Below, piece by piece: positions 7,789 through 16,849 of a DNA stretch of 64,000 nt. The DNA is taken from positions 547,501 to 611,500 of the forward strand of contig CAJNDT010001868.1 in assembly GCA_905221615.1 (NCBI GenBank), written 5' to 3'. The DNA comes from Symbiodinium sp. CCMP2592 (lineage: Eukaryota; Sar; Dinophyceae; Suessiales; Symbiodiniaceae). Each line of letters begins with the position of its first letter. The first letter of the stretch is position 1. The notes under the pieces were generated by a model. It searched no databases. It worked only from the letters and a program-made list of their open reading frames with translations, and had not been told where the DNA came from. A program made the translations under genes and the position numbers.

Positions 7789-7977
7789 TGCACAGACGGA
7801 AGCAGATGATGGCAACACCGAGGATGCTAGATCCAGCTGCTTTGCTTTTGCATTTGATCTACATAAGATGGATTGAGTTAGGATCTCTGAGAAGCGCTAA
7901 GCGCTGCAGCTTCAAGCTGCCGAGGCAAGAGGCCTTGTCTCCTCGTATCGCTTCAACAGACCGGAGCAACGGATGCA

Positions 7978-8091
7978 ATGCAATGCAATATTGCTACTAC
8001 TGCTACTACAACCAATACTACTGCTGCTGCTGCTGCTGCTGCTACTACTACTACTACTACTACTACTGCTACGACTATTTCGCACGACTGC
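7978..8091 (+). repeat. CTA/CTG trinucleotide array at the LINE target site
   Basis: An array of TACTAC, GCTGCT and ACTACT runs ending in CTGCTACGACTATTTCGCACGACTGC, directly before the 5' target-site duplication of the LINE. Confidence 0.85.
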
Positions 8092-8112
8092 AAGTACAAT
8101 TGCCACGACCAG
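8092..8112 (+). repeat. LINE target-site duplication, 5' copy
   Basis: AGTACAATTGCCACGACCAG, preceded by one A. The same 21 bp recur at 16850-16870 immediately after an A8 run. This is the expected product of target-primed reverse transcription. Confidence 0.92.
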
Positions 8113-8366
8113 TTGCGCTTTATTTTGAACAAAGATGGAAGTCATGCGGAAACCCCACTGGGGGTGGTAGCCTGGCGTACTTGCGTTATTCGACATGGGT
8201 CGCTTGGCAAACCATTTCTTCGTGTGCATAGTGAAGCATCTCGGCTCATCCAAAGGATAGCTGACGGCGACAAGGGCCGGTGTAGGATTGCTGGCTTCTC
8301 GGACGGTGTGGTTGGTGTTTGGGGTTCGGCTTTGTTCTTCGTTCAGGGACTTGGGCACATGCCCCC
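8113..8366 (+). other. LINE 5' leader
   Basis: 254 bp between the duplication and the first plausible ATG. An internal promoter is expected for LINEs, but I see no recognisable motif. Confidence 0.5.
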
Positions 8367-8738
8367 ATGGCTGCAGCTACTGCTATGGACTTGTGCCCTC
8401 CGCGAGGGCACAACAAGATTTCGAAGACGGCCTGGTGGAGGCACCAAGATCTGCTGCATAAATGCATTTCTGACCTTGCTATGGAACTGCTGTGTGAGAA
8501 GTGGAGAGAGCTCCCGCCCTCAGCCAAGCAATCCTTGCAAAATCTGTATGGAAGCAGCTGGCTTTGGGAAGCTCCTTTCAGTATCTGGATGGATTGTTGG
8601 ACACTGTTACAACCTAACCAACGTGTTCGGCTTATTTCCAACACCTACTTTCTCAATGAAGAGTTTGCCCACTGCATGGTTGAATGCGCGTACGCAGCAC
8701 AGATTGGAAAGATTGATGATCTTGCTAATATGGATTAG
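8367..8738 (+). CDS. LINE small upstream ORF (frame 3), 123 aa
   Basis: ATG at 8367 and TAG at 8736-8738. The composition is gene-like: WWRHQDLLHKCISDLAMELL, then LPPSAKQSLQNLYGSSWLWE, then a Phe/Tyr/Leu-rich helix-like tail. It overlaps the open frame 1, whose translation here is an irregular mixture, so frame 3 is probably the used frame. It may be an ORF1-type nucleic-acid-binding or gag-like protein split by a stop, or a short uORF. No motif recognised. Confidence 0.45.
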   Translation: MAAATAMDLCPPRGHNKISKTAWWRHQDLLHKCISDLAMELLCEKWRELPPSAKQSLQNLYGSSWLWEAPFSIWMDCWTLLQPNQRVRLISNTYFLNEEFAHCMVECAYAAQIGKIDDLANMD

Positions 8739-8990
8739 TTCAGGTGCTCCTCTGAGGTTGGAGCATATCTTGCGAGCCTTAGAAGGGGCTCGACGATTGA
8801 TGCTTCGCAGCCTGCGAGTACCACCTGATGCAGATCCGGCCCTCCTGGCGAGACTTGTCGGTTTGCTATGCACTTTTCTGTTTGAAGCTTTGCTCTGCAG
8901 CCGAATCAAGTTTTTCTTGCAGCCGCTTGTTCGCACAGCTTGTTTGACAGCAGCCCCACTCTGGCGGATTATTACCTTTCTCTGCTACCA

Positions 8991-9545
8991 ATGCCGGGGC
9001 CCAAAAGGCCGGATGATGGTGACTCTGAGCCACCTCGCTCGAGAAGTCCCAGGACTCGGCCCCTGCTTAGACCACGGTACTTGCAGCCGGAACCTTCTCC
9101 GCCTGATGCACCGCCTAGTGGTCCGCCTCCTCCGGTGCCAGTCCACTATGCTGCTGATGATGCTGCAACCCTTGCGGATGACTCACCCCCAGGCGGCGCG
9201 GACTCTATGGATTCCGACGAGATCACCATTCGAGAGCTGGCTGAAGAAGCCCGGCGGCTTCGTGCGGAAAGGGGCCCAGCCAAACCTACGACAGCCTCTA
9301 CACGGGCGCATGCTGCCGTCAACACTCTACCAGCTCCTCGCGAGGATCATGAAAACTCGGAGTCTGAATGCCCGGCGGAGGACGATGAGATCGATGAGAA
9401 CCCCTTCGATACATCCTCTCGACCGGAGGACGACCTTGCTGCAGCCACAGCCACAGTCCCTGAAGATAGCAGTTCAGATGGTTTCAGCCCTCTCACCCCT
9501 GCTAGTGCTGATGGTCTCGGGTTTGAACCAGCCACCAAAGACTGA
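8991..9545 (+). CDS. LINE ORF1-like acidic Pro-rich protein, 184 aa
   Basis: ATG at 8991 (MPGPKRPDDGDSEPPRSRSP) and TGA at 9543-9545. It is Pro/Arg/Ser-rich at the start, with a central short helix (DEITIRELAEEARRLRAERG). The C-terminus is strongly acidic (SESECPAEDDEIDENPFD). It is probably disordered. The frame has normal amino-acid usage, whereas the overlapping frame-1 translation is Arg/Leu/His/Met-heavy, as expected of an out-of-frame reading. The stop lies 34 nt before the next in-frame ATG of the EN-RT ORF (9580), compatible with termination-reinitiation. Confidence 0.55.
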   Translation: MPGPKRPDDGDSEPPRSRSPRTRPLLRPRYLQPEPSPPDAPPSGPPPPVPVHYAADDAATLADDSPPGGADSMDSDEITIRELAEEARRLRAERGPAKPTTASTRAHAAVNTLPAPREDHENSESECPAEDDEIDENPFDTSSRPEDDLAAATATVPEDSSSDGFSPLTPASADGLGFEPATKD

Positions 9546-9579
9546 ATGTACTTCCTCCTGTGCAAAGCCTTCGCTTTTC

Positions 9580-12500
9580 ATGGATGCGTGGTGGAACTGG
9601 GAAAAACAGGTGCCGCTGCTGATTTGCATATCTGCCCTCTACCGGTACATGCAGTGCATCTTCTACATTTGCCAGGCCTTCTACCACCACCTTTCGGACA
9701 TTCGGTACGGTGGCACTCTTAGAGTACCTGCAAGCTGGCAGCCCCACATCAATGATGAAGCTCTATGTCAATTTTGCTCTGGTACAGGTGCCTCTCCTAC
9801 TACGCCCACGTCTCCTACAAAGCAGTGCCGCCTGGGTCCCAAGTCCCAGGGTGCCGGAAGCATTAGATGTTTACGCACACCACTACTACTTTTGCTGTTG
9901 ATCGCATGGATACCAGCAGCATGTGCCGGCACAGATGCGAGGGTTGATTCTGATTCCCGCCCGGTTTCTGGAGCCCTTCGGGGTGAACTTTTAGGTGGGA
10001 GCACCGCTTGCACGACTACTTTTCCGGCGCCATGCTCAGGCAGGCAACGAATTCGCAAACGAGCTTTTGCCCGAGCGCTTCGTCGAGCCCGTTCCTCACA
10101 GGATGGAACAACCGTCTATCGAGGCCGAACTCTTCGTGCGCCCCAACATAGTGATCCACACCCAAAGCCCAACAGGCCCTCTGCAACAACTGCGTCCTCG
10201 CCGACAACGCGGCAGCGCTCCAGGCTTCGCACTTTCAGTCTGAATGTTGGTGGTCTTGACGCCACAACGTTTGATTGTCTTATGGCCTGGCTCCCTAAAG
10301 CACCGTATGATATCATAGCTCTGCAGGAAATCCACCATGGTCTGGGGAAAGAGTCCTCACACTGGTCCTCGGCAGGTTGGACCTTCATAACCAGTGTCGA
10401 TCCTTCCTCTAGATTTCAGGGCCTTGCCACGCTGGTTCGACAGGACTTCCAGGGTGATGCGGAGATTCACCACAAGGAGATCAAACCAGGCCGTCTGCTA
10501 CATGTACGTCTCGCACGACCCGAATATCACATAGATGTGGTGAACTTTTATCAACAAGCTTACCAGCCAGACTCAGCGGGACACAACCTCTCCAAACGAC
10601 ACAGTCTGTGGGACAGCCTAAATGCCACTATACAACAGCTGGCCAGGCGAAACATGTTGGTTCTGCTGGGCGACTTCAACTGTACCCCGATTTATGTCGC
10701 GGGGCACATCGGATGCTCAATGTCCAGCGCTGAGCTCTACTCGGATGCTGCAGAATTTACCACCATCCTGGAAGCTAACCAGCTGGTCGTACTCAACACA
10801 TGGTCTCGACGTCGTCTGCTCCCTACCTTTACAGGTCCTAGGCATCAGTCCATCATTGACTTTATCATCACCCGACAGGGACATGCAGATGCAGTGGCTC
10901 GACGTGCTCTACCCCAACGAGGCTTCACACTCAGTCCGTGGCGTCAAGGGGGCAAGCATCACCCAGTTGAGGCCACTCTCCCTCTACATCCAGGCTGGCA
11001 GCGGGCCTCACCACGGTCGTCCACTCAGCCCAAAAGATCCTATGATAACTTGGCTCTCACGGCTGCTGTCCGAGATCGCACTCCGCAATATGATGCCCTC
11101 CGAGAAGCTTTCAGGTCCAAACTTGCGGCGGCACAAACCTCTGACCTTCAACAAATTAACGATATTCTGCTTGATTTGGTTTGCAGGCTTTTTCCGCGAG
11201 CTCCTCCTCAACCACAGCTCCGGGCTTGGCAGACGTCGGAGGTGCAAACATCAGTAGCGGACATGTGGCGAGCAAGGAGGCGAATGCAAAGGCCGGCTGA
11301 CCACCCACCAGGCTCCTTTCGAGCCTGTTTTCAAGCATGGCGACGACACCAGGAATTTCAAAAAGCCTACAAGGCCCTTCGAAAAAGGGGCCGAGAAGCT
11401 CGCAAAGCCGTCCTCGAGAACTACCTGGAACAGGCCCAGACTGCTGTTGAGCGGGGTGATCATGGCTTATTGCATCGCATTATTCGGCAAATGGCCCCCA
11501 AAACCCGACATGCCCAGGTTCGTATACATGGTAAACAGGGTGAGATGCTCACCTATCAGCAGGAGCAGCAGGCCATTGTTGAACATTTTGAGACTCTGTT
11601 TCTGTCTCGACAGTCTGGATGCACACTGTCTGCAGCTCGACCTTCGGCACACTACGAGGTCAGCCCGCTTATGTTTCAGCAAGCCCTCGACTCGCTCAAG
11701 ATGGGCAAGGCAGTACCTCCGGGCAGCGCTCCTACCAGTGCGGTACGTGCATGCTCGGACATGATCTCCACGATTGCTGCTCCTCAGGCCGAGACCTGTC
11801 TGAATGGGGCTGAGACGCCGTCTTTGTGGGCCGACTGTACTCTGGCACTCATCCCCAAGCCACACAAATCGGGGAAACGACCCGAAAACCTCCGACCTCT
11901 AGGACTACAAGATACTGGTGCAAAGGCCTATGCTAAGGTACTGAAGCAATTACTCTTACGAGAAGTCAGCTCCACCATAGCCGCTTTGCCACTGTTTGCA
12001 TATGTACCTGGTAAAAGCACAGACACTGCTATTTCGCGAGTGACGGCCCACTGCAGACAAGTCCGCTCTATGCATGAAGGGCAGCAGGCCACTGTGCATA
12101 CACGTCGGGCCCAAATCAAACAGAAAGTGGCCATTGGCGGCATACAACTTGCGATCGATCTTTCAACAGCTTTTGATCGAGTACCTCGTGAACGGCTATA
12201 TCAGGCACTGATTTGGGCAGGCGCCAGCGAGACTTTGGCACGAACAATTATAGATCTGCACGAAGTCTGTAAGTACAGCATCAATCATCGCGGACGTCAC
12301 AGTCACATTAACATGCGACGTGGAGTACGCCAAGGATGTACACTAGCTCCTTTGCTGTGGGTAGTATACTCAGCCTATGTAGCTGACCATCTAGGTCAAG
12401 AATTGTCCCACACCTGGGTATCGCAACATCTGACGCTGTACGCTGATGACACACATGCCAGCTGGCTAGTGAATTCATTGGGAGACCTTCGCTCAGCTCT

Positions 12501-13903
12501 GCAGGCCATACCTGTCATCTTTTCAGTATATCAACGATTTGGAATGCAGGTGAATCCGCAAAAGTCTGGTATTATCCTGGGTGTCAAAGGCCTGCTAGGC
12601 AAATCTACTCTTGCACCCCATGTACATGGACCTCCAGATGCCCGACGGCTTGTGCTTGGCCCCCCGCATCAGCAATTGATCATACCTATCAAGGATAGTC
12701 TGACTTACCTTGGTGTCAGTATCTCCTATGGTGGTTTCGAGGACATCACCCTGAATTACAGACTGGATGTGGCTCGTAATACCAGAGGCCGGCTCATTAA
12801 AATTCTACATGCTCGTAGATATCTTTCTGTTCGCAAGCGCCTCCAGCTTTACACACTGTGTGTCCGAACGGCGGCCTTATATGGTCTCATGCCAGTTGGC
12901 CTCACCGCCGCTGGGCTGAGAAGACTACATACCTTTGAGGTCAAACATGTTCGAGCTATCTCTCGTAGCCCGGTGCATATCACCCGGGAACCTACGGAGG
13001 CCCTGTACAAACGACTTGGCTTGATTCAACCAGGAGACTACCTGCTGAAGCTCTTGAAACAGCGAACTCGTACCCTCACCAAACTCCAAGATCTGGCGGT
13101 AGCACAATTTCAACAGCGAATAGAAGAACTCAAGCAACACCTCGCAGCTCTGCGACATGGTCTTCAGGAAGTCACGGCTACCCAAGCCTTTGCCTGCCCT
13201 ACTTGCGGACAATACTTTGACACGCTGCCAGGGATGCGCTCTCATCACACCAAGACTCATGGATGGAGACTTCAGGTAGTCTCAGCTGGACCCGCCAAAA
13301 GATTGCATGGACTTCGTATACAAGACCATTGCACCAACAATATGCCTATTTGTCGACATTGTAACGCAAAGCTCTCTACTTGGCATCAATTTCGTGTACA
13401 TATACTTACCAGCTGTGTTGTGTTGCATTCTGACGCAAAGGGTGAAAGGCCTGCTTTGCAGTCCGCTGCGGGGCCCCAACCCGAGCCTGCTTTGCAGTTC
13501 GCTGCGGGGCTCACTGCTGAAGGTGCAACAGAAAACGCGCTCCTGGCTCCTTTTGAGCTACCTGAAGTGCAAGCCTTGCTTTCCACTAACCAGTGGAAGG
13601 ACGTTCTCAACATCAGTGCGATGAAAGAAACTCTTCGGCATCATTGCGTGCTTTGCGGTCAATGGGTAGCACGTGCACCAAGCTCCATGATTTTACATGT
13701 GCGAGCTATACATCCAGACTTGATGTTGTACTGGGACGATGCTATGGCTCACAGTTTGACCCTCGCAGAAGGACACGCTCGACCCTGCAAAGCCTGTGGA
13801 GCGACACCCCGTGGGCGACACAGATGTCGTATCCTGCATCAGCTCTGCCTTATGTTACACTACTGGCGTGCCCTGCGACAGCTCAGGTCTGAACCAACCT
13901 ATA
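9580..13903 (+). CDS. LINE endonuclease-reverse transcriptase (ORF2 core)
   Basis: Frame 1. The ATG at 9580 is the first start after the ORF1 stop; no stop follows until 16041, so the true C-terminus is uncertain and 13903 only marks the start of the overlapping ORF. APE endonuclease signatures: SLNVGG (~10239), LQEIHH (10321), GDFNCTP (10669), SIIDFIITR (~10850) and KHHPVE (~10954). Reverse transcriptase: IPKPHKSGKRPENLRPLGL (~11850), AIDLSTAFDRVPR (~12151), RGVRQGCTLAPLLW (~12320), the catalytic YADD at 12439-12450, and LTYLGVSI (~12703). Downstream zinc fingers: FACPTCGQYF...HHTKTH (~13190), ICRHCNAKL...HILTSC (~13341) and CVLCGQW...HVRAIH (~13648). All core acidic residues are present, so the enzyme may be active. 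Confidence 0.93.
13450..13513 (+). repeat. 36 bp period duplication inside the LINE ORF
   Basis: CCTGCTTTGCAGTYCGCTGC occurs at 13450 and 13486. It encodes two similar PALQ(S/F)AAG segments between zinc fingers 2 and 3. Confidence 0.7.
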
Positions 13904-15172
13904 ATGGCCCACCAGGAGGAGACCTTTGGACCACAGGACCCTATGACCAGGGGACAGTTAGCGGCGGAGGAAGTGCGGGACATCCTGGGCGAGGCTGTGG
14001 CGACAATGCAGCCCCATCCACGGGAGGATGTGGACATGCCTGCAGCCCCAACTCTGGGGAAACGAACGGAGGATCAACAGATCCGACCCACAAAGTTTTC
14101 CAAGCCAGCGGGGAAGGGGCAGGGCCAAGGGCAGTCACCCACCAAGGGACCGGCAGACGACAAGCAGAACAACCCCAGCCCACCAGCAAGCTCCTGGCAA
14201 AACCCCAGGGGATGGAAGGACCAACAGCTGCAGCGTCGGCAAGGACAGGGCTGGAAGCAGCAGGAGTGGGACGACGAATGGTACCACCACAGCGAGGTGA
14301 AGGAGTTACGCCAAATGGTGGAAGCCCTTCAGGAGCATGTGAGGCTCCTGGCGAGGATGGCCCTGCGGCACGAAGACGAGCTCTCACAAGCTCGCACAGA
14401 GCGCGACTTTCTTTTTACTTTCGAGCCGCCCACGACCGAGGCAGACTCCAACATGGTGAACATGCTGGGCCTCATGTTCAAGATGGCGGTCCTCTGGAAG
14501 GAGAAGAAGGAGAAAGGGGAGGTGGACTCCTCTCTCAGGCTTGTTCTGTTCCTGGGCCTGCTTCGCCAATGGACGAAACAAATCACCACCAACCTCGAGC
14601 AGCCGGAGGACTTGGAGCAACTGGCCAAGCTAAAGCTTCTTCGCCAGAAGGATGCCGGGCAGGGCATGGAATGGCCATATCTACGATGGAACCAGGAACG
14701 CCAGATGCTGGAAGAGTCGCAAACCCCGGCTCTGGATCACAAGGAGCTGATGACAGCTCTGGCTACCCTGGAGTCGTCCATCACAGCCCCGGGAGCCCTC
14801 CTTCGATTCCATGCAACGCGACGGCTTGTGGAGCAGCACCAGTCCCCGGTCACGTTCCTGGTGACGATCGGGATGCGGGACCCAAAGTCCCTACTCTGCC
14901 ACCGCGCTCTGTGCTCGCTATGCTTCAACGCCAGCAGCCAACTGTTGAAATTCCGAGTCCGCCCAGCCAGGATGGAACGCCAGCCGCTAGCCCGGGTGCT
15001 TGCCGAGCAATTCCCACCGCCCACGGAGCATCCCATGGGCCGCGGACGGAGCTACAGAAAGCCCCCGTCGAATCGCCCCAGCCCGGCACGCGAAATGCCA
15101 CCGAAGCACCCAGCAGTGCCGATCGCGAAAGAGGGGGACCAGACGGGACAGCAGGAGGAACCCACCTCCTAG
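13904..15172 (+). CDS. Overlapping frame-2 ORF in the LINE, 422 aa
   Basis: ATG at 13904 (MAHQEETFGPQD) and TAG at 15170-15172. The frame is open further upstream to 13796. The N-terminal ~110 residues are polar and Lys/Gln/Pro-rich (GKGQGQGQSPTKG). A helix-rich globular part follows: EVKELRQMVEALQEHVRLL, then RHEDELSQARTERDFLFTFE, KMAVLWKEKKEKGEVDSSLR and EQLAKLKLLRQKDAGQGMEW. The C-terminus is basic and Pro-rich. Third positions are G/C-rich in this frame, while frame 1 over the same DNA reads as Gly/Pro/Ser/Ala filler, so frame 2 is the better-supported product. I recall related sequences near LINEs in Symbiodiniaceae proteins, but this is unverified. It could be a gag-like or nucleic-acid chaperone protein. 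Confidence 0.65.
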   Translation: MAHQEETFGPQDPMTRGQLAAEEVRDILGEAVATMQPHPREDVDMPAAPTLGKRTEDQQIRPTKFSKPAGKGQGQGQSPTKGPADDKQNNPSPPASSWQNPRGWKDQQLQRRQGQGWKQQEWDDEWYHHSEVKELRQMVEALQEHVRLLARMALRHEDELSQARTERDFLFTFEPPTTEADSNMVNMLGLMFKMAVLWKEKKEKGEVDSSLRLVLFLGLLRQWTKQITTNLEQPEDLEQLAKLKLLRQKDAGQGMEWPYLRWNQERQMLEESQTPALDHKELMTALATLESSITAPGALLRFHATRRLVEQHQSPVTFLVTIGMRDPKSLLCHRALCSLCFNASSQLLKFRVRPARMERQPLARVLAEQFPPPTEHPMGRGRSYRKPPSNRPSPAREMPPKHPAVPIAKEGDQTGQQEEPTS

Positions 15173-15204
15173 AGTGGAGCTTGCAGCAGGGATGCTCGAG
15201 GCCC

Positions 15205-16041
15205 ATGCTCAGACTTCGTCTTCGCAATCCTCACAATCTCTGTTATGCAAATGCTACCATTAACATGTTCCTTTGGCATGGCATGATACATGAGCGACAA
15301 CTTGAACAGGCTGATACATATGGGCAACTTCGCCATCCCCTGGAGCGCCTACGTCAGGTTGGCAATGCTTGTTTGCAAGATATACCTTTCTGGCTCACAC
15401 TCTTGCAGCGGTTTCAGACCTTTCTACACACCCGCTTTGATCGCCAACAGGACGCTGTGGAGTTTTTGGGCTTTATGCTTGAATATGCTCGACCATCAGC
15501 CTATGCAGGCCTTTGGCAATCCAGATACCAATTTGGCCCGGCAGTTTGTGTTGCTGATTCAGGCCATCCCCTGCAGCCAATCACTCTGGAGCTGAATTCG
15601 CGAGGATTGCAGGCAAGCATCGTCGACTGGCATTTGCAACCACCTTTTCCTTATGCTTTTTGCCAGGCCCCTAGGATGCTCTTCTTTCAACTTAAGCGAT
15701 GGGCTCAGAAAGATCCCAGCCGACCAGCTCGCAAAGATCTCATGCCATTTCCGTTTGAGGTTGGAGCGCCTATCGATCTGCCAATTTTTGAACGTGCCCA
15801 AGGCCTTCATGTGCAATGGCAACGATACAGACTTGTTACAGTGCTGGTGCATACTGGTATGCACCCATGGGCAGGTCACTACCGCTCCATTCTGAGTGGC
15901 TTTCGGCAGCTTCCCAATGGCGATACCAAATGGATGGCAATGCTTACGGATGATGGCAGAGAAGTTCGTTTATGCAGCAGTGCAGACATGCAGCATGCCA
16001 TATCCAACTGCTATCTGTTTGGCCTATGCCGTGATTCATGA
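15205..16041 (+). CDS. LINE-encoded ubiquitin-specific protease (USP/UCH C19) domain
   Basis: Frame 1, ATG at 15205, 32 nt after the ORF3 stop; TGA at 16039-16041; 278 aa if started there. The Cys box is NPHNLCYANATINMF (Cys codon 15241, residue 13). The QQD box is RQQDAVEFLGFML (~15442). The hydrophobic strand before the fold core is RMLFFQLKRW, matching the usual P-x-x-L-x-x-x-LKRF. The His box is HPWAGHYRSIL (His codon 15877, residue 225). The third catalytic position lies in WMAMLTDDGREV (Asp at 15949 or 15952). The domain is short and I see no CxxC pair typical of the USP fingers zinc site. USPs hydrolyse isopeptide bonds after ubiquitin Gly76. The element could use this to protect its proteins from proteasomal decay. 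It is made as a separate product or as the C-terminus of the long frame-1 polyprotein. Confidence 0.88.
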   Translation: MLRLRLRNPHNLCYANATINMFLWHGMIHERQLEQADTYGQLRHPLERLRQVGNACLQDIPFWLTLLQRFQTFLHTRFDRQQDAVEFLGFMLEYARPSAYAGLWQSRYQFGPAVCVADSGHPLQPITLELNSRGLQASIVDWHLQPPFPYAFCQAPRMLFFQLKRWAQKDPSRPARKDLMPFPFEVGAPIDLPIFERAQGLHVQWQRYRLVTVLVHTGMHPWAGHYRSILSGFRQLPNGDTKWMAMLTDDGREVRLCSSADMQHAISNCYLFGLCRDS

Positions 16042-16849
16042 ATCAGCCAGGGAAGCGACAGTGGATCATAGCACAGTGATCGAGTTGACTTTAGTCTGCA
16101 TTCTCATTGTGCCGACAATCTTTCTCCTGTATGCATGCGCCGAACTTTTCTACAGCTTTACGTTTGTTGAGTGATCACTGCTACTGCCTTGCTTAGTCAC
16201 TCGTGACGAAGGCAATAGTCTTTTAAGCTTTTGGATATCTGCTTGGCCGTACGCGGCGGGGTATCCACACGTTTTCTGTAACTATCGGAAATGTACATAG
16301 TACAGCTCCAAGCCGGGTATCAAAGTCTGATGCCTGTTTCCAGAGTTGCGGTCGCTAAGCGTCCATTCACCGGATGCTGCGAACTGAATGAATGAAAAAC
16401 GTGTGCATAGTGGTTATTTACGCTCATGCCCCATTCCATGGGTTTGCGCCTTTCTGGGAATGGATATGCCCTGGCCATTCGGCCATGAGGCTTCTTGCCA
16501 TTGGTCCACAGTGTGCGAATGATTCTGAGATCTGACTTCCGGTTGGGTTAGTGTGGCCCGCCGTTTTTGCATCAGCGCTCGGAATGCATGGCTCGGCTAG
16601 GCTGGCCGCTCCAGCTTGCCGTTGACACGTTGGCCGTCCTGGGCCGCAAACAAGGGCCAGTGGACCGTGGGGCCGTGTGCACTTAATTCACGCTGAACGA
16701 CTTTGCCGGCTAAGTCTGTATGTCGCAGCTTGTTGTTTCACTTTGTACAGGTAGTAGTTTATTCTTTTTCGTTTCTTGCAGCTTCTTGTAGTTCTTCCTG
16801 GGACCGAGCGCAGCAGCCGCTGTCTACGAGGCCCGCCCACGCCAAAAAA
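16042..16849 (+). other. LINE 3' UTR and poly(A)
   Basis: About 800 bp without a long ORF, ending GCCCGCCCACGCC followed by A8. It contains GAATGAATGAAAAA at ~16386. The same word occurs right after the helicase pseudogene end (~5160), a hint of shared 3'-end sequence but too short to prove it. Confidence 0.7.

What the first reader, a model, noticed from the sequence alone, without database searches (positions are those of the whole stretch)
15205..16041. A ubiquitin-specific protease domain is carried by a LINE retrotransposon
The 3' end of an EN-RT element encodes a compact USP-like domain. It has the Cys box (NLCYANATINMF), the QQDAVEF box, the LFFQLKRW strand, the WAGHYRSIL His box and a TDDG Asp position, all in order and apparently intact. 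Deubiquitinases in non-LTR elements are unusual. The OTU and Ulp1 folds are the ones I know from transposons. The element may protect its own RNP from the proteasome or edit host ubiquitin marks.
Basis: partly seen in the sequence, partly recalled or inferred. Interest (0 to 1): 0.88.

Follow-up and report, generated by a model that had tools for sequence, protein, structure and literature searches.

The report
LINE retrotransposons carrying a built-in deubiquitinase
A jumping gene in a coral-symbiont alga carries, fused to the end of its copying enzyme, an intact-looking ubiquitin-removing protease, and the same fusion recurs in many related jumping genes of this genome, which suggests they use it to manage the host's protein-tagging system.

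Summary
Window 8234-16399 is a near-full-length APE-type LINE with a 13-bp target-site duplication. Its last 278 aa match Pfam UCH (2.2e-10, above cut-off). It is no one-off chimera: 139 scored places in the own genome match, and 102 of 139 have a related RT 1.7-2.7 kb upstream on the same strand. Asn, Cys, Gln, His and Asp of the active site are invariant in 37 of 37 representatives (5 short or damaged leaders dropped). dN/dS is 0.08-0.27. RT and USP distances correlate over 16 elements (r 0.86), fitting one old acquisition, with one topological conflict. Most likely the USP acts in cis as a deubiquitinase protecting the element's own RNP; that step is inferred. My literature searches found no USP in a LINE.

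The parts
8221..8233 (.). 5' target-site duplication CGTGTGCATAGTG
   Evidence: two other near-full copies show their own different duplications
8234..16399 (+). LINE element, 8166 bp; 3' end TGAATGAATGAAAAA; no LTR (no direct repeat of 25 nt or more at the two ends)
   Evidence: ends shared with L031 (99.2%) and L032 (96-97%); L033 is 5'-truncated
8236..16041 (+). ORF A: open frame of 2601 codons inside the element; conserved N-terminal motif RKRAFARALRRA at 10054; true start codon not settled
8886..9542 (+). possible 5' ORF (219 codons, proline-rich) in another frame; weak, no Pfam match
10237..10893 (+). APE-type endonuclease domain (Exo_endo_phos)
11854..12720 (+). reverse transcriptase domain (RVT_1), YADD at 12439
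13195..13803 (+). Cys-rich zinc-finger-like region (C2H2/CxxC motifs)
   Evidence: below Pfam cut-off
13904..15169 (+). ORF B, 422 codons from its first ATG, +1 frame relative to ORF A, overprinted; basic, disordered-looking N-terminus and conserved core; stop at 15170-15172
15205..16041 (+). USP (C19/UCH) domain with stop codon
16400..16412 (.). 3' target-site duplication CGTGTGCATAGTG

Best explanation
Window 8234-16399 is one member of a diverse group of APE-type LINEs in the genome of a Symbiodinium alga. The group acquired a compact ubiquitin-specific protease, probably once, and has kept it fused to the C-terminus of the EN-RT protein. Shown: the domain, its intact active site across families, the open frame joining it to EN-RT, purifying selection, correlated RT and USP divergence. 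Inferred: the fused USP works in cis, removing ubiquitin from the EN-RT protein itself, from the ORF B protein and from host factors bound to the RNP, so that the complex escapes degradation long enough to complete target-primed reverse transcription. Fusion rather than a separate gene fits LINE cis-preference (recalled).
For: UCH match (36 of 37). N8, C13, Q81, D83, H225, D250 invariant in 37 of 37 representatives. Best PDB profile hits are USP46/USP12, E about 1e-14. dN/dS 0.08-0.27 in 15 pairs. 102 of 139 USP places have a related RT 1.7-2.7 kb upstream on the same strand. Of 12 RT places picked without a listed USP, 8 carry a full and 2 a gap-cut USP. ORF A free of stops through ORF B in 16 of 16 elements tested, 5.6-14.8 expected. 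RT-USP distance correlation r 0.86, P 0.0001, 16 elements. Public proteins with EN, RT and UCH in one chain.
Against: No activity, expression or substrate data. No conserved zinc cysteines and a finger region about half as long as in USP46, so ubiquitin may not be the substrate. One lineage (L099, L110-L112) keeps a USP-like domain without Cys and His under apparent constraint. Elements tested for openness were picked for long frames. 22 of 31 public relatives have no UCH listed; many are too short to reach it, but some of 1900-2000 aa (P0032, P0035) lack it. RT and USP trees conflict on P0015/P0016. No structure could be predicted.
Confidence: 0.5

Rival explanations
1. The USP acts in trans on the host: it removes ubiquitin from a restriction or silencing factor, or from chromatin at the target site, so that integration is tolerated.
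For: Active site conserved across families. Fusion to EN-RT would bring it to target DNA. PMC2836005 (passage) suggests a role in DNA repair for OTU/Ulp1 domains of transposons.
Against: No substrate known. Dinoflagellate bulk chromatin is poor in histones (abstract of PMC6723414 in the listing), which weakens the histone version.
Confidence: 0.22
2. The domain is mainly a ubiquitin (or ubiquitin-like) binding module or scaffold; catalysis is secondary.
For: A lineage with no Cys, no Gln-Asp box and no GHY box keeps the C-terminal domain; dN/dS 0.18, though dS there is 2.6-2.8 and so rough. Zinc cysteines missing.
Against: Catalytic residues invariant in 37 of 37 representatives, which binding alone would not require.
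Confidence: 0.13
3. The USP is a polyprotein-processing protease that cuts the long ORF A product.
For: Very long single frame; the TYMV OTU-like PRO/DUB does both jobs (abstract of PMC5695851 in the listing).
Against: USPs cut after ubiquitin (recalled); no ubiquitin-like domain found in ORF A of the window or of L037 at E<=1.
Confidence: 0.08
4. Chance or annotation artefact: a host USP gene or retrogene beside which a LINE happened to land.
For: Dinoflagellate genomes hold many retrogenes (titles and abstracts).
Against: Element ends lie outside the domain, spacing to RT is constant, many families, correlated divergence.
Confidence: 0.01

Closest known systems
SymbioLINE-Dnmt (LINEs with a cytosine methyltransferase in ORF1, Symbiodinium; PMC5890265, section 6, passages)
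   Same: APE-EN + RT LINE of the same algal group, target-site duplications, captured enzyme with conserved catalytic residues
   Different: enzyme is a DNMT in a separate upstream ORF; 'ubiquitin' and 'USP' occur 0 times in the main text; no overprinted ORF in the parts I read
NeSL and Utopia non-LTR retrotransposons with an Ulp1-like cysteine protease (PMC4640811, passages)
   Same: non-LTR element encoding a ubiquitin-like-modifier protease together with RT
   Different: restriction-like endonuclease, protease at the N-terminus, Ulp1 rather than C19
Ginger1 and other DNA transposons with OTU or Ulp1, and a Trichomonas transposase_11 + Peptidase C19 protein (PMC2836005, passages)
   Same: mobile-element protein with a deubiquitinase-type domain (C-terminal in Ginger1); the Trichomonas case is also C19
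   Different: DNA transposons, not LINEs
USP46/USP12 (PDB 5l8h, 5k16) and other cellular USPs
   Same: Cys, Gln-Asp and His boxes align in order
   Different: cellular genes; finger region about twice as long (about 113 against 56 positions)
LINE-1 ORF2p (PDB 8uw3 and others)
   Same: nearest solved RT by sequence (3.2e-9)
   Different: no USP and no overprinted ORF B (recalled); L1-clade membership not tested by a tree

Membership tests
Ubiquitin-specific protease, Pfam UCH PF00443 / MEROPS C19 | profile score above curated cut-off | tested here: met
   41 bits vs 23.9; 36 of 37 representatives match at E<=0.01 (cut-off not checked for each member)
Ubiquitin-specific protease, Pfam UCH PF00443 / MEROPS C19 | Cys box, oxyanion Asn, Gln-Asp box, His box, Asp in order | tested here: met
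   42 cluster leaders: Asn 40, Cys 40, Gln 41, His 42, Asp 40; all exceptions fall in the damaged or short L009, L025, L043, L061. With these and L052 dropped, invariant in 37 of 37
Ubiquitin-specific protease, Pfam UCH PF00443 / MEROPS C19 | zinc-binding cysteines in the fingers (in many, not all USPs; recalled) | tested here: not met
   C13 is the only invariant cysteine; finger region compressed. Not defining for all USPs
Ubiquitin-specific protease, Pfam UCH PF00443 / MEROPS C19 | USP fold and hydrolysis of ubiquitin conjugates | not testable with these tools
   structure prediction switched off; no assay
APE-type non-LTR retrotransposon (LINE) | APE endonuclease upstream of RT in one ORF | tested here: met
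APE-type non-LTR retrotransposon (LINE) | target-site duplications, shared 3' end, 5' truncation, no LTR | tested here: met
   three copies with different TSDs, L033 5'-truncated, no terminal direct repeat
APE-type non-LTR retrotransposon (LINE) | placement in a named clade by RT tree | not tested
   only a PDB hit to L1 ORF2p
SymbioLINE-Dnmt | DNMT domain in ORF1 | tested here: not met
   no DNA_methylase in ORF A, ORF B or the possible 5' ORF of the window element
NeSL / Utopia | restriction-like endonuclease and Ulp1 protease | tested here: not met
   APE endonuclease and UCH found, no Ulp1 hit at E<=1

The most novel reading that the evidence does not exclude
A whole lineage of LINEs has kept a deubiquitinase fused to its reverse transcriptase through deep divergence, and encodes its second (ORF1p-like, basic, probably RNA-binding) protein by overprinting inside the same ORF, so that selection keeps two frames open at once to preserve the EN-RT-USP tether; one branch has since turned the enzyme into a catalytically dead ubiquitin-domain module.
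Probability: 0.6. Interest if true: 0.88.

Novelty: new variant of a known kind. Interest (0 to 1): 0.8.

Why it matters
A LINE that brings its own deubiquitinase gives a natural test of whether ubiquitin-dependent turnover limits retrotransposition, and of which proteins are ubiquitinated. The branch without an active site is a built-in comparison. The overprinted ORF would be an unusual gene arrangement for a LINE. It also adds a second captured enzyme, after DNMTs, to dinoflagellate LINEs.

Tried and rejected
Rejected: unique chimera or host gene beside a LINE (recurrence); degenerate remnant (open frames, dN/dS); frameshift decay between zinc fingers and USP: the other frame there is ORF B, a conserved protein (a profile of five B proteins hit the B ORF of all 9 further elements and no other of 325 ORFs at E<=1).

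Tried without result: structure prediction (switched off), hence no fold search. One DNMT place of the 124 was followed downstream (L113): I saw no long RT-like ORF and no USP hit there, so the relation to SymbioLINE-Dnmt stays open. Pfam found nothing above cut-off in ORF B, and nothing at E<=1 in the ORF after USP in L035, in the dead-USP protein L112 or in the 5' ORFs. The start codon of ORF A was not settled. For 5' ORFs of 110 codons or more that overlap ORF A, openness of ORF A was not significant in the window (P 0.06 and 0.13) but lower stop counts than expected appeared in some of L034, L035 and L037 (P 0.003-0.04); these ORFs are mechanical and I draw nothing from them. The promoter scan uses a bacterial consensus and says nothing here.

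Literature for a USP in a LINE or a dinoflagellate retrotransposon, seen as listings: 20 of 179 papers; 20 of 112; 12 of 12; 20 of 35; 5 of 5; 20 of 3,905; 3 of 3; 10 of 46; 5 of 5. None by title or abstract start; open-licence PMC papers only. One search (LINE-1 and ubiquitin) gave 10 of 78, not used. PMC9412976 was looked into: its ubiquitin hydrolase tree is mentioned, with no retrotransposon in the text.

Full report
1. The observation. The frame 7891-16041 is open for 2716 codons. Within it Pfam finds an APE-type endonuclease (Exo_endo_phos), a reverse transcriptase (RVT_1), C2H2 fingers below cut-off and, in the last 278 residues (15205-16041), UCH PF00443 at 2.2e-10, 41 bits, cut-off 23.9. 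The N-x4-C spacing of oxyanion Asn and catalytic Cys is that of cellular USPs (recalled).

2. The element. Three other copies in the own genome define it: L031 99.2% and L032 96-97% identical, both starting at the base that matches window 8234; L033 is 5'-truncated, its match starting at window 11894. The window copy has CGTGTGCATAGTG on both sides (8221-8233 and 16400-16412); L031 and L032 have their own different repeats. The element is 8166 bp, ends in TGAATGAATGAAAAA and has no terminal direct repeat of 25 nt or more. These are LINE hallmarks.

3. The host. Public proteins named from Symbiodinium sp. CCMP2592 lie on contigs of 273,594 and 2,142,105 bases, the lengths of G000 contigs C211 and C1335. 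So the window very probably comes from that strain, called S. tridacnidorum in PMC8045281 (passages).

4. Recurrence. A search of the genome with the USP returned 139 scored places of 1724 candidates; counts are lower bounds. Of the 139, 102 have an RT of these families 1.7-2.7 kb upstream on the same strand (84 with two RT queries, 18 more with a third); control arrangements (opposite strand or downstream) gave 0 and 1. RT and USP lay in the same frame in 56 and 15 of these matches. The RT lists were capped (137, 136 and 138 rows), so the remaining 37 are not shown to lack an RT. Of the 139, 50 lie in a frame of 1900 codons or more. Conversely, of 12 RT places that I picked for a long frame and no listed USP, 8 have a full USP downstream, 2 (L107, L109) a USP cut by masked bases, 1 (L108) is masked there and 1 (L099) has a changed domain. 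So USP is common in this RT group. It is not universal among public relatives: 22 of 31 proteins have no UCH listed; my profile finds USP in three of these (P0027, P0028, and the start of it in P0021); many of the rest are too short to reach it, but P0032 (1992 aa) and P0035 (1938 aa) are not.

5. The active site. All 97 loci held at that time, about 91 distinct places, contain the domain; they had been fetched because they match it, so this is no independent count. 90 are near full length and form 42 clusters at 80% identity. Among the 42 leaders Asn is present in 40, Cys in 40, Gln in 41, His in 42, Asp in 40; every exception lies in L009, L025, L043 or L061, which are short or damaged. After dropping these and L052, N8, C13, Q81, D83, H225 and D250 are invariant in 37 of 37; 36 of 37 match UCH. 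Their profile hits USP46 and USP12 structures best (E about 1e-14), with the finger region shortened from about 113 to 56 positions and without conserved zinc cysteines.

6. Selection. Of 27 pairs tried (Nei-Gojobori), 9 were saturated, 3 concern the changed lineage (0.18, 0.18, 0.35) and 15 gave dN/dS of 0.08-0.27; three of these 15 have dS of 1.9-2.4 and are rough. Close pairs include copies of one family, whose recent differences may be neutral.

7. The overprinted ORF. In each element read through, a second ORF (B; 263-426 codons, 256 in L032 where a stop cuts it) lies in the +1 frame between zinc fingers and USP. I compared stop counts with shuffles that keep the B protein and its codons. 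ORF A frame: 0 stops in all 16 elements (7: window, L031, L032, L034-L037; 9: L098-L106), expected 5.6-14.8, P at most 0.0015 each. Third frame: near expectation (from 9 against 13.7 to 11 against 8.2). L031 and L032 belong to the window's family and L100 and L101 to one family, so about 13 families are independent. These elements were picked for long frames, which biases toward this result; but without constraint such elements should be of the order of one in a thousand or fewer, while 50 of 139 places have frames of 1900 codons or more. I conclude that selection keeps the EN-RT frame open into USP, so that they are made as one polypeptide, at least sometimes. ORF B is itself conserved: a profile of five B proteins hits the B ORF of all 9 further elements (E 3e-29 to 1e-56) and nothing else among 325 ORFs. 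Between families the A-frame linker also aligns at 27-32% identity, about as high as B in most pairs (window-L034: B 39%, linker 29%), so identity alone does not rank the two frames. B has a basic, disordered-looking N-terminus (KGKGKG-like runs in several) and a conserved core; I infer an ORF1p-like nucleic-acid-binding protein. Pfam has no match above cut-off. How B is translated is unknown.

8. History. Among 16 elements with both domains (5 from this genome, 11 of the public proteins; a 17th, P0014, fell to the script's filter), RT and USP distances correlate with r 0.86, P 0.0001. The trees share window+P0009, L034+P0010, P0015+P0016 and the group L036, P0017, P0019, P0020, but conflict on P0015/P0016: with the window group in RT (support 0.95), with L035 in USP (0.91). 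This fits one acquisition and mostly joint descent, with a possible exchange. In P0012, P0014 and P0027 the USP follows the fingers more closely, and in P0012 the B-like part comes after USP (by eye; spacing of P0027), so the order may have changed. Public proteins with RT and UCH in one chain include P0009, P0010, P0011 and 9 of 31; in P0013 UCH is below cut-off but my profile finds it. Those with RT, USP and a species name are from Symbiodinium; P0013 is from JGI, P0028 from EukProt, the ENA ones are unnamed, so a wider range is open.

9. The changed lineage. L099, L110 and L111 (one family) and L112 (48% identical to it) have a domain at the same place that matches the USP profile only weakly (14-15 bits in a search of four sequences; no hit for L099 at E<=1), with no catalytic Cys, no Gln-Asp box and no GHY box; dN/dS is 0.18 at dS 2.6-2.8. 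I read it as a dead USP kept for binding; the homology rests on a weak score plus position.

10. Mechanism. The evidence shows a conserved, fused, probably active C19 peptidase. That it removes ubiquitin from the element's own RNP is inference from fusion, LINE cis-preference (recalled) and conservation. Rivals: action on host factors, binding only, polyprotein cutting (no ubiquitin-like domain in ORF A of window and L037).

11. Known kinds. LINEs with Ulp1 (NeSL, Utopia), DNA transposons with OTU or Ulp1 and one Trichomonas transposase with C19, and SymbioLINE-Dnmt are the closest. In the open-licence papers searched (listings) I found no USP in a LINE. Hence: a new variant of a known kind, with the overprinted ORF as the least expected part.

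Noticed in passing
L099:1-4101, L110, L111, L112: Related LINE lineage whose C-terminal USP-like domain lacks Cys, Gln-Asp and His boxes but still looks constrained.
   Followed up: partly
P0012 (Symbiodinium sp. CCMP2456 gene model): USP lies before, not after, the ORF B-like part, followed by a region that looks to me like a 2OG-Fe(II) oxygenase (recalled motif; Pfam gave no such hit).
   Followed up: partly
L035:7954-8820 (+): 288-codon ORF just after the USP stop, also oxygenase-like by eye; no Pfam match at E<=1.
   Followed up: partly
window 8886-9542 (+) and L034:524-1417 (+): Proline-rich / acidic ORF in another frame in the 5' region of two related families; possible third ORF; no Pfam match.
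   Followed up: partly
G000 family of L037 (C3347 and others): Ten RT places with exactly the same 3851-codon frame at 98-100% RT identity, plus one of 3850 and one of 3848: a very recently active family.
   Followed up: no
L107, L108, L109: Masked (N) runs fall at the USP end of these elements.
   Followed up: no
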